Assembly: GCA_021811945.1 (NCBI GenBank)
Contig: JAKAPE010000012.1
Coordinates: forward strand, 1-34,616
Direction of reading: 5' to 3'
DNA length: 34,616 bases
Source of the DNA: Pseudomonadota bacterium
Lineage (GTDB): Bacteria; Pseudomonadota; Alphaproteobacteria; Rhizobiales; Xanthobacteraceae
Each line of letters opens with the position of its first letter. The first letter of the stretch is position 1. Below the pieces are notes generated by a model. That model was not told where the DNA came from. It did no database searches and saw only the letters and a list, made by a program, of their open reading frames with translations. Of the stretch, positions 28,036 through 29,844 are shown in pieces. Both the position numbers and the translations under genes were made by a program.

Positions 28036-28070
28036 TTGGCGCCTATAATGATGGATGGGCGCCTATAATG
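28035..28070. repeat. Direct repeat containing two TATAAT boxes
   Basis: GAT(T/G)GGCGCCTATAATG occurs twice with a 20-base period (28034-28050 and 28054-28070), starting at the tatC stop codon. Each copy carries TATAAT, the sigma-70 -10 consensus, but neither has a recognisable -35 at 16-18 bases. It begins the 420-base tatC-serS gap. Confidence 0.75.
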
Positions 28071-28161
28071 TCTGCGACGCGATTCTGATTCGTCATGGCC
28101 GGGTAAAAACGCACGAGAGCGCCTTTCAGCTATTGACCCGGCAATTCATCGGCCGTTAGGA

Positions 28162-28446
28162 CCGTCACCCTGAGGGGCTCGCCGCGAAGCGGCGAGCCTC
28201 GAAGAGCGACGGCCGGGGCAGTTTCGACGCCTCGGCCGCATCCTTCGAGGCTCGCCACGCAAGTCGGGTATTTCCGACTTGCGCACTTTACGTTGCCGAT
28301 CTCGGAAACATCCGAGATCGGTGGCGCGCGCCTCAGAGAATGTGAATCTATTCGACTTTTGTAGTTTTCACCCCTGCTAACCCATTGATTTGACTCAGGT
28401 CGAAAAGTGCCGGAATTAAAAGATTCACAAGCTCTCAGGATGACGG
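28162..28446. repeat. Composite inverted-repeat element (REP/BIME-like) upstream of serS
   Basis: The element has terminal inverted repeats CCGTCACCCTGAG (28162-28174) and CTCAGGATGACGG (28434-28446), matching at 12 of 13 positions. Inside are a 10-bp stem with a GAA loop (28176-28198), a 13-bp inverted pair GCGAGCCTCGAAG / CTTCGAGGCTCGC (28192-28204 and 28243-28255), and two successive 10-bp stems with 6-base loops. Those stems (28258-28283 and 28296-28321) both have TCGG-N6-CCGA tips. A further inner inverted pair is GAGAATGTGAATCT / AGATTCACAAGCTC (28336-28349, 28421-28434). Palindromic elements of this style are dispersed in Bradyrhizobium-type genomes. No coding frame was recognised in 28036-28455. 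The serS ATG lies nine bases after the element. Confidence 0.8.
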
Positions 28447-28455
28447 GACACAGGC

Positions 28456-29844
28456 ATGCACGACATCCGCTTCATCCGCGACAATCCCGAGGCTCTCGAC
28501 CGCGCGCTCAGGCGCCGCGGCCTCTCCGGCGAGGCACAGCGCCTGATCGCGCTTGACGAGAAGCGACGGGCGAAAATCCTTGAGCTGGAAACCGCGCAGG
28601 CGCGCCGCAACGCCGCCTCGCGCGAGATCGGCGAAGCCATGAAAAAGAAGGATGAGGAGAAAGCCAAGGGCCTGTTGATCGAGGTGGCCGCGCTCAAGGA
28701 ATCGATCCCCGCCTTGGAAGCCGAGGAAAAGAAGGCCTCCAAGGAGCTTGACGACGCGTTGGCGGAAATTCCCAACCTGCCGCTTGACGACGTGCCGGAC
28801 GGCAAGGATGCAAGCGACAATGTCGAGCGTCATCGTTTCGGAGCCAAACGCGCGTATGTCTTCACGCCGAAGCAGCATTTCGATCTCGGCGAAGCGCTCG
28901 GGCAGATGGATTTTGAGACTGCGGCCAAGCTTTCAGGAGCGCGCTTTGTCGTATTGCAGAAGGGCCTTGCGCGGCTCGAACGTGCGCTCGGGCAATTCTT
29001 TCTTGATGTCCATACGACCGATCACGGTTACACCGAAGTCGCGCCGCCGCTTTTGGTGCGCGATGACGTGATGTTCGGTACGGCGCAGTTGCCGAAGTTT
29101 AGAGAAGATCAGTTCATCGCAACGAATGATATTTTCTTTAGGGAGTCCTTTAATCAGGCGATTAATGAGCATGATTGCGGTACGCTTCCGGAAGGCGTCG
29201 ATGTAGCCCGTCGAATAGGCCAACTTACCGCGGCAAGAAATCTATGGCTTATCCCCACCGCCGAAGTATCGCTGACCAATCTCGTGCGCGAATCCATCCT
29301 TGGCGAAGCGCAACTGCCGATACGGGTTACCGCCGGCACGCCGTGCTTCCGCGCCGAGGCGGGCGCGGCGGGAAAAGATACGCGCGGCATGATCCGCCAG
29401 CACCAGTTCAACAAGGTCGAGCTTGTCTCCGTCACCACGCCGGAGCAGTCGAAGGACGAGCACGAGCGCATGCTCTCGTGCGCCGAGGAAGTTTTGCGCC
29501 GGCTCGATCTGCATTACCGCGTGGTCACGCTGTGCACCGGCGACATGGGGTTCGCGGCACAAAAGACCTACGACATCGAAGTCTGGCTGTCGGGGCAGGG
29601 CGCCTATCGCGAGATTTCCTCCTGCTCGAACTGCGGCGAGTTCCAGGCGCGGCGCATGAATGCGCGCTACCGCAGCAAGGAAGGCCGCCAGCTCCGCCAC
29701 GTCCACACGCTCAACGGTTCCGGCGTCGCCGTCGGCCGCGCGCTCATTGCGGTGATGGAAACCTATCAGCAGGAGGATGGCGCGATCGCCGTGCCGGAGG
29801 TACTTGCGCCTTATATGGGTGGCATGAAGAAGATCGAGAGATGA
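28456..29844 (+). CDS. serS: Serine--tRNA ligase
   Basis: 462-residue class II synthetase charging tRNA-Ser (and tRNA-Sec where present). The N-terminal antiparallel coiled coil (about 25-110) binds the tRNA long arm. The catalytic core has motif 1 near [10 protein letters not shown], the serine-binding [11 protein letters not shown] (265-275), motif 2 [21 protein letters not shown], and motif 3 near [20 protein letters not shown]. Between LPKF (212-215) and W264 there are 48 residues where E. coli SerRS has about 18, and this DNA is AT-rich (about 40% GC in 29101-29180). The frame stays open, so the enzyme is probably functional with an inserted loop. Confidence 0.95.

What the first reader, a model, noticed from the sequence alone, without database searches (positions are those of the whole stretch)
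28162..28446. About 285-bp nested palindromic element ending nine bases before serS
Terminal inverted repeats (12/13 match) enclose at least four further inverted pairs, including two consecutive hairpins of identical design (10-bp stems, 6-base loops, TCGG-N6-CCGA tips). The element supplies almost the whole serS leader, and the GACGGG of its right terminus sits where a ribosome-binding site should be. It may be a non-autonomous mobile repeat that now affects transcription or translation of an essential gene.
Basis: partly seen in the sequence, partly recalled or inferred. Interest (0 to 1): 0.55.

Follow-up and report, generated by a model that had tools for sequence, protein, structure and literature searches.

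The report
REP repeat invaded by IS1182 MITE
The 285-base palindromic stretch before the serS gene is two kinds of mobile repeat stacked together: a widespread palindromic repeat, into which a 99-base passenger of an IS1182-type jumping gene has inserted at its usual landing spot.

Summary
The outer part is a pair of inverted CGTC-tagged REP-like units, a dispersed family in this genome: its core has 86 matches with up to one mismatch, 45 exact, against 5 for the reversed control. The right unit is split by a 99-bp miniature element (28336-28434) with ends GAGNNTGTGAATC and a 3-bp TCA duplication. A same-genus genome has the same REP pair before serS without the insert. Of 26 copies of the miniature element read, 24 have a REP tag beside them. 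A 1.5-kb IS1182-family element has matching ends and the same target. Of 20 IS copies with a candidate end on both sides, 18 show a 3-bp duplication, 9 in this REP and 9 at TAC, mostly in a GTAG-like REP. All 26 miniature copies keep a match to the recalled IHF consensus at their midpoint, and their arms change length together. This is a new variant of a known kind. A RAYT origin is not supported for the inner part; an effect on serS is untested.

The parts
28091..28145 (.). possible remnant of an older CGTC REP (CGTCATGGCCGGG ... GACCCGGCAAT); some relatives have intact REPs of that type in this gap
   Evidence: Inverted arms 28095-28107/28133-28145; intact CGTCATGCCCGGGC-type repeats before serS in L142 and L067. 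Inference.
28162..28212 (+). REP-like unit 1, CGTC head on the left
   Evidence: Arms 28162-28185/28189-28212; 36 distinct head-tail units of this design in the own-genome loci L001-L058, 25 of them 40-49 bp long
28239..28446 (-). REP-like unit 2, inverted, CGTC head on the right; interrupted by the MITE at 28336-28434
   Evidence: Own-genome copy L002 has this half uninterrupted, 94% identical over 109 bp; same-genus G014 has the uninterrupted pair before serS
28258..28321 (.). two-hairpin spacer module in the loop of unit 2 (28258-28283 and 28296-28321)
   Evidence: I8, I9; shared with L002, L010 and L021, and in part with L027; absent from the G014 copy
28333..28335 (.). left copy of the 3-bp target duplication (TCA of CCTCAGG)
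   Evidence: length of 3 bp inferred from IS copies whose outer bases differ between sides
28336..28434 (.). 99-bp MITE, GAGAATGTGAATC...GATTCACAAGCTC
   Evidence: Standalone 92% copy in L003; relatives in 13 of 391 family genomes, own genome counted; empty site; IS with matching ends
28378..28390 (-). match to the IHF consensus WATCAANNNNTTR at the midpoint of the MITE
   Evidence: The only match in the window, 0.21 expected; 19 of 100 shuffles had at least one. Present in 26 of 26 MITE copies. Consensus recalled; binding not tested
28435..28437 (.). right copy of the 3-bp target duplication (TCA)
28456..29844 (+). serS, whose leader holds the composite
   Evidence: Pfam Seryl_tRNA_N and tRNA-synt_2b

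Best explanation
A head-out pair of CGTC-tagged REP-like palindromes settled in the tatC-serS gap before the window's genome and its congener G014 diverged. Later a 99-bp MITE inserted into the CCTCAGG of the right-hand unit, duplicating TCA. The MITE is a non-autonomous passenger of an IS1182-family insertion sequence whose DDE transposase recognises GAGNNTGTGAATC-type ends and uses the tag-side arm of REPs as its target. Shown: dispersed copies, the empty site, the shared end motif, the shared target and the duplication. Inferred: that this transposase moved it in trans. More speculative: that an IHF bend at the midpoint brings the two ends of so short an element together for transposition.
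For: REP family dispersed in own genome. Standalone MITE copy in L003 and an uninterrupted REP half in L002. Orthologous empty site in G014...GCGCACCTCAGGATGACGGGATAAAACCA-ATG. 26 copies read: 24 with a REP tag beside them, 18 of these also with the REP partner arm on the other side within 70 bases, 25 with the same middle base of CTNAG on both sides. An IS of 1526 bp in L224 with the same end motif, inserted in the same REP site, transposase NF033551 IS1182, 369 bits against a cut-off of 270. 18 of 20 distinct IS copies with a candidate end on both sides have a 3-bp duplication; 9 are TCA in this REP, all 9 in the same orientation, and 9 are TAC, 7 of these after CCCACCCTAC. Own genome holds REP-inserted left ends of such an IS at four places.
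Against: No intact transposase of this IS was seen in the own draft assembly, only fragments and ends at or near contig edges, so the source of transposase there is unproven. MITE and IS share the terminal motif, but I saw no clear similarity in the interior (by eye), so descent of the MITE from this IS by deletion is not shown. 2 of 26 MITE copies (L003, L176) are not in a REP. Two IS copies, L247 and L251, have right-end candidates that do not repeat the left bases; these may not be true ends. None of the 18 IS copies has the IHF match, so IHF is not a general need of this transposase.
Confidence: 0.88

Rival explanations
1. One REP/REPIN-like element mobilised by a RAYT (Y1) transposase.
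For: Five PF01797 matches in the own genome, one of them RAYT-like by NCBIfam but below the cut-off. The outer units are REP-like, and CGTC REPs are said to lack a known dedicated transposase (PMC3733652, abstract).
Against: The inner 99 bp stands alone elsewhere and has DDE-type ends and a target duplication. The REP pair exists without it at the same locus. None of eight exact motifs of these repeats was found in L189 around the RAYT-like gene. The tag is CGTC, not GTAG.
Confidence: 0.05
2. A conserved cis-regulatory leader of serS (attenuator or IHF-controlled element).
For: Strong folding. REP-like repeats of various types occur before serS in several relatives, for example L142, L143, L144, L067, L068, L069. 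An IHF consensus match ends 65 bases before the start codon.
Against: The repeats differ between species and are absent in same-genus G001 (L141). The same sequences occur at other loci. The MITE alignment shows almost no compensatory change: 1 of 17 predicted pairs. No promoter or terminator was found by simple scan.
Confidence: 0.06
3. The MITE core is kept for CcrM (GANTC) methylation, as proposed for the CIR repeats of Caulobacter, rather than for IHF.
For: A centre and a right-end GANTC occur in 25 of 26 copies, a left-end one in 18 of 26. CIR repeats are about 110 bp, alphaproteobacterial and carry GANTC (PMC2229807, passages). The invariant run continues beyond the IHF consensus.
Against: The left-end GANTC is missing in 8 of 26 copies, and L198 has lost the centre and right sites while keeping the IHF match. 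CIRs are described as lacking terminal inverted repeats. In the 20-base core the only two columns under 90% identity are N positions of the IHF consensus.
Confidence: 0.25

Closest known systems
CGTC-tagged REPs (Di Nocera et al. 2013, PMC3733652; abstract, passages and sections 6, 7 and 14 read)
   Same: CGTC tag, alphaproteobacterial, mostly head-to-head dimers, spacers that can carry extra hairpins.
   Different: Most units here are 41-50 bp with a bulged stem and variable palindromic loops, outside the four described families (stem 8-9 bp, loop 4-5 bp).
REP-targeting insertion sequences (Tobes and Pareja 2006, PMC1525189; passages read)
   Same: IS that insert specifically in REPs; ISPsy8 makes a 3-bp duplication.
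   Different: In the table rows visible to me the families were IS110, IS4, IS256 and IS5 (one family name was cut off); the term IS1182 does not occur in the main text.
IS1272, IS1182 family (PMC5678879; passages read)
   Same: IS1182-family transposase that targets inverted repeats.
   Different: IS1272 removes its target repeat and leaves no duplication; here the REP is kept and 3 bp are duplicated in the 18 IS copies that could be read.
Correia/NEMIS elements of Neisseria (PMC2229807; passages read)
   Same: About 105-155 bp MITE; the longer form carries an IHF site that binds IHF in vitro.
   Different: Different host and TA-type ends; their IHF site lies in a 50-bp internal part that only the longer form has, here the match is at the midpoint of all 26 copies.
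Br-REP1 and Br-REP2 of Bradyrhizobium (PMC5082802; passages read)
   Same: Composite intergenic repeats with several stem-loops in a related lineage; Br-REP1 resembles the second hairpin here by eye.
   Different: No nested MITE or IS partner in the passages I saw; sequences are not identical.
CIR repeats of Caulobacter (via PMC2229807, passages; original paper not held)
   Same: About 110 bp, alphaproteobacterial, GANTC.
   Different: CIRs are described as two separate stem-loops without terminal repeats; no sequence comparison was made here.

Membership tests
CGTC-tagged REP | CGTC tag at one end, stem starting with AT | tested here: met
   35 of 36 units read CGTC and 1 TGTC; 27 have AT and 9 AC next (units were selected on GTCA[CT]CCTGA). 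In the window, unit 1 has AC, unit 2 AT.
CGTC-tagged REP | stem 8-9 bp, loop 4-5 bp, CCA tail (families 1-4) | tested here: not met
   Bulged stem CATCCT--GAGG/CCTCGAAGGATG, variable loops, 25 of 36 units 40-49 bp
CGTC-tagged REP | head-to-head dimers in an alphaproteobacterial genome, dispersed | tested here: met
   Pair in the window; 56 blastn matches in own genome with 40 of 86 candidates scored, some of them both strands of one palindrome; serS relatives are Hyphomicrobiales. Dimer share and intergenic location were not counted.
MITE | short, no coding capacity, terminal inverted repeats | tested here: met
   99 bp, GAGNNTGTGAATC-type ends; no ORF of 90 aa lies within the gap
MITE | target duplication at a demonstrated empty site | tested here: met
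   Window against G014
MITE | autonomous partner with the same ends | tested here: met
   IS in L224 and relatives share the end motif and target; mobilisation itself not tested
IS1182 family (partner) | transposase above curated cut-off | tested here: met
   NF033551 369.2 bits against 270
IS1182 family (partner) | replacement of the target repeat without duplication (as IS1272) | tested here: not met
   18 of 20 IS copies with a candidate end on both sides carry a 3-bp duplication
RAYT-mobilised REP/REPIN | GTAG tag and neighbouring RAYT gene | tested here: not met
   CGTC tag; eight exact motifs absent from L189; L190 and L191, fragments of other Y1 genes, each have one isolated motif hit
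IHF-binding repeat (RIB/RIP or Correia type) | bound and bent by IHF | not testable with these tools
   Consensus match only, 26 of 26 copies
CIR repeat | two separate stem-loops without terminal inverted repeats, GANTC | tested here: not met
   Terminal repeats present; GANTC present; sequence not compared

The most novel reading that the evidence does not exclude
A REP-specialised branch of IS1182 has split into forms that read different REP superfamilies (CTNAG in CGTC-type units, CTACG in GTAG-type units) and insert the same way round. It supports a 99-bp MITE whose midpoint is an IHF bend: the host protein does the work of bringing the two ends together, and arm length is under symmetric, helix-phased constraint. 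Each insertion turns a plain REP into an IHF-carrying one.
Probability: 0.3. Interest if true: 0.6.

Novelty: new variant of a known kind. Interest (0 to 1): 0.42.

Why it matters
It resolves an apparent single element into an ordered stack (REP pair, then MITE) with an empty site, and names the kind of transposase that probably moved the inner layer. It suggests that IS1182 belongs among the IS families that use REPs as landing sites, with two target types and a fixed orientation, which makes REP recognition by a DDE transposase directly testable. The symmetric arms around a conserved midpoint allow a simple bench test of host-factor-assisted transposition. For serS it says that the leader is repeat material that differs between close relatives, so regulation should not be assumed.

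Tried and rejected
RAYT origin: five Y1 matches in the own genome. Eight exact motifs were looked for around them: none in L188, L189 and L192, one CCTCGAAGG in L190 and one CCTCAGG in L191. Rejected for the inner part; open for the outer part.

Known RNA family: only a tRNA elsewhere in the window reached a gathering score; the five weak hits in the gap are far below theirs.

RNA hairpin function of the MITE: the consensus fold covers the ends and a small central stem; covariation term +0.22, 1 of 17 pairs compensatory.

Sigma-70 promoter or intrinsic terminator in the gap: none found.

Five-base duplication (CTNAG): set aside for 3 bp, because six IS copies in two genomes read CTCAG on the left and GTCAG on the right at different loci, and one TAC copy is followed by C instead of G.

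Spread beyond the family: in an order-wide sample only the own genome matched, 1 of 357 (strict filters and 10 candidates scored per genome, so copies may be missed). No match on 72,556 plasmid records.

Literature: in the listings of searches I saw no paper joining IS1182, REP targets and this MITE. Most listings were cut (for example 15 of 209). One search found no paper with 'IS1182 family', 'REP sequences' and 'insertion'. Of the 16 papers holding one of four core strings, the 15 listed do not concern bacterial repeats by title. In PMC12306157 only passages for six terms were sought; one reference turned up. Most subscription papers are not in the library; Chen and Shapiro 2003 (CIR) is not held.

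An alignment with wrong coordinates for G014 was discarded and redone. An earlier reading of L248 as an opposite orientation was wrong, since its transposase is on the other strand.

Rows dropped: of 28 distinct model hits, L180 (partial; it too has the IHF match) and L231 (an IS end; no match) were left out, leaving 26. The 30 IS loci are 28 distinct copies, since L249/L259 and L250/L260 are one copy each. 20 have a candidate end on both sides and 18 of these a duplication. L247 and L251 do not; in the other 8 one or both ends were not found. Selection to know: the pattern asked for a T after the right end, and one search took the candidate that repeats the left bases where there were several. 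The right end of L249 was read by eye; the others also appear with patterns that did not ask for this or as the only candidate.

Full report
What is there. The tatC-serS gap (28036-28455) holds a strongly palindromic stretch, 28162-28446, as reported. It folds far better than shuffles. The flanking genes are TatC and seryl-tRNA synthetase. The closest serS relatives in named genomes are Hyphomicrobiales, among them Afipia, Bradyrhizobium and Pseudolabrys.

Outer layer. The own genome gave 56 blastn matches to the stretch, with 40 of 86 candidates scored and some matches being the two strands of one palindrome. Different parts of the stretch match different places. The core CCTCGAAGGATG has 86 matches with up to one mismatch, 45 of them exact, against 5 for the reversed control. 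In the own-genome loci L001-L058, 36 distinct units have a GTCAYCCTGA head and a CCTCGAA partner; 35 read CGTC, and 25 are 40-49 bp long. The window has two such units back to back. They fit the description of CGTC-tagged REPs in tag, host group and pairing, but not in stem and loop length (PMC3733652; abstract, passages and three sections read). [quoted passage not shown]

Inner layer. The segment 28331-28439 stands alone in another contig of the same genome at 92% identity with sharp ends, while the REP half that surrounds it in the window is uninterrupted in a third place. Relatives occur in 13 of 391 genomes of the family, the own one counted (at most 2 candidates per genome were scored, so copy numbers are floors). 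A pattern through ends and centre gave 19 matches in 9 of 391 genomes and none for the reversed control. In an order-wide sample only the own genome matched, 1 of 357.

Order of events. In same-genus genome G014 the gap before serS has the same REP pair in the same place, with ATCGGCCGTTAGGACCGTCACCCTGAGG on the left, ACCTCAGGATGACGGGA on the right, and no insert. Same-genus G001 has no REP there, and G011 a different one. So the REP pair came first and the 99-bp element later; this is not a conserved leader. The two-hairpin spacer is absent from G014 too.

Target. Of 28 distinct model hits I left out one partial copy and one IS end, leaving 26. By a loose pattern, 24 of 26 have a REP tag beside them, 18 with the REP partner arm on the other side within the 70 bases searched. 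Three of the 24 have a tag on both sides. L003 and L176 are not in a REP. The middle base of CTNAG is the same on both sides in 25 of 26, the whole five bases in 24.

Partner. A search for the end motif in 13 genomes showed unpaired ends at or near contig edges and one pair about 1.5 kb apart. That pair bounds an element inserted in the same REP site, with a 445-codon frame that scores as IS1182 transposase, 369 bits against a cut-off of 270. Relatives at E <= 1e-60 occur in 14 of 391 family genomes, with 4 candidates scored per genome; the own genome is not among them. The 30 loci fetched are 28 distinct copies. 20 have a candidate end on both sides, and 18 of these have a 3-bp direct repeat: 9 TCA, all with a tag of this REP beside them and all with the transposase start next to the REP body, and 9 TAC, 7 of these after CCCACCCTAC, which I read as the tag end of a GTAG REP (that reading is an inference). 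L247 and L251 do not show it. The outer bases differ between sides in seven copies, so the duplication is 3 bp and the miniature element is 28336-28434. The own genome has four REP-inserted left ends of such an IS, but only partial or broken transposase pieces in its draft assembly.

Centre. All 26 copies have a match to the IHF consensus WATCAANNNNTTR (recalled) at the midpoint. The hits were found with a model that includes the centre, so copies without it may be under-represented. Among the 22 distinct sequences the arms are 42 and 44 in 18, 41 and 43 in two from one genome, 52 and 54 in one, and 42 and 43 in one with a deletion in the centre; shuffles of the copies match in 0.6%. In the 20-base core only two columns fall under 90% identity and both are N positions of the consensus, but the other two N positions are as conserved as the rest, and the invariant run goes beyond the consensus. 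The copies are related, the arms are themselves an imperfect palindrome and could be copied from each other, a GANTC site lies in the same run, and none of the 18 IS copies has the match. IHF-carrying MITEs are known from Neisseria (PMC2229807 and PMC10969869; passages).

Effect on serS. Nothing here shows one. No promoter or terminator was found by a simple scan. The bases GACGGGA before the start codon are also in G014, so the MITE did not bring them.

Verdict.

Noticed in passing
L186 (G232), also L284 (G009) and L287 (G018): MITE copies with a REP tag on both sides and no REP loop between; L186 has CTGAG left and CTCAG right. This resembles replacement of the inverted repeat, as reported for IS1272.
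   Followed up: partly
L006 2322-2430 (own genome C117): Two tandem copies of about 29 bp made of a REP tag and a short IS1182-like end (CCGTCATCCTGAGAGCCTGTGAGCGTTTT), perhaps a scar of IS loss.
   Followed up: no
L239, L240, L244, L248, L250, L253, L257, L261, L266: In CGTC-type REPs the IS lies the same way round in 9 of 9 copies with both ends read: transposase start next to the REP body, stop side next to the tag.
   Followed up: partly
window 28038-28050 and 28058-28070: Direct repeat GGCGCCTATAATG just after the tatC stop, each with a TATAAT; the scan found no promoter there.
   Followed up: no
L189 1420-2091: RAYT-like gene in the own genome, below the NCBIfam cut-off; repeated peptide strings in neighbouring frames suggest flanking repeats of its own.
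   Followed up: no
L142, L143, L144, L146, L067, L068, L063, L069, L148: The gap before serS carries REP-like repeats of different types in several of the leaders printed, while others (for example L141, L066, L070) have none that I could see; perhaps a recurrent landing place. Not counted.
   Followed up: partly
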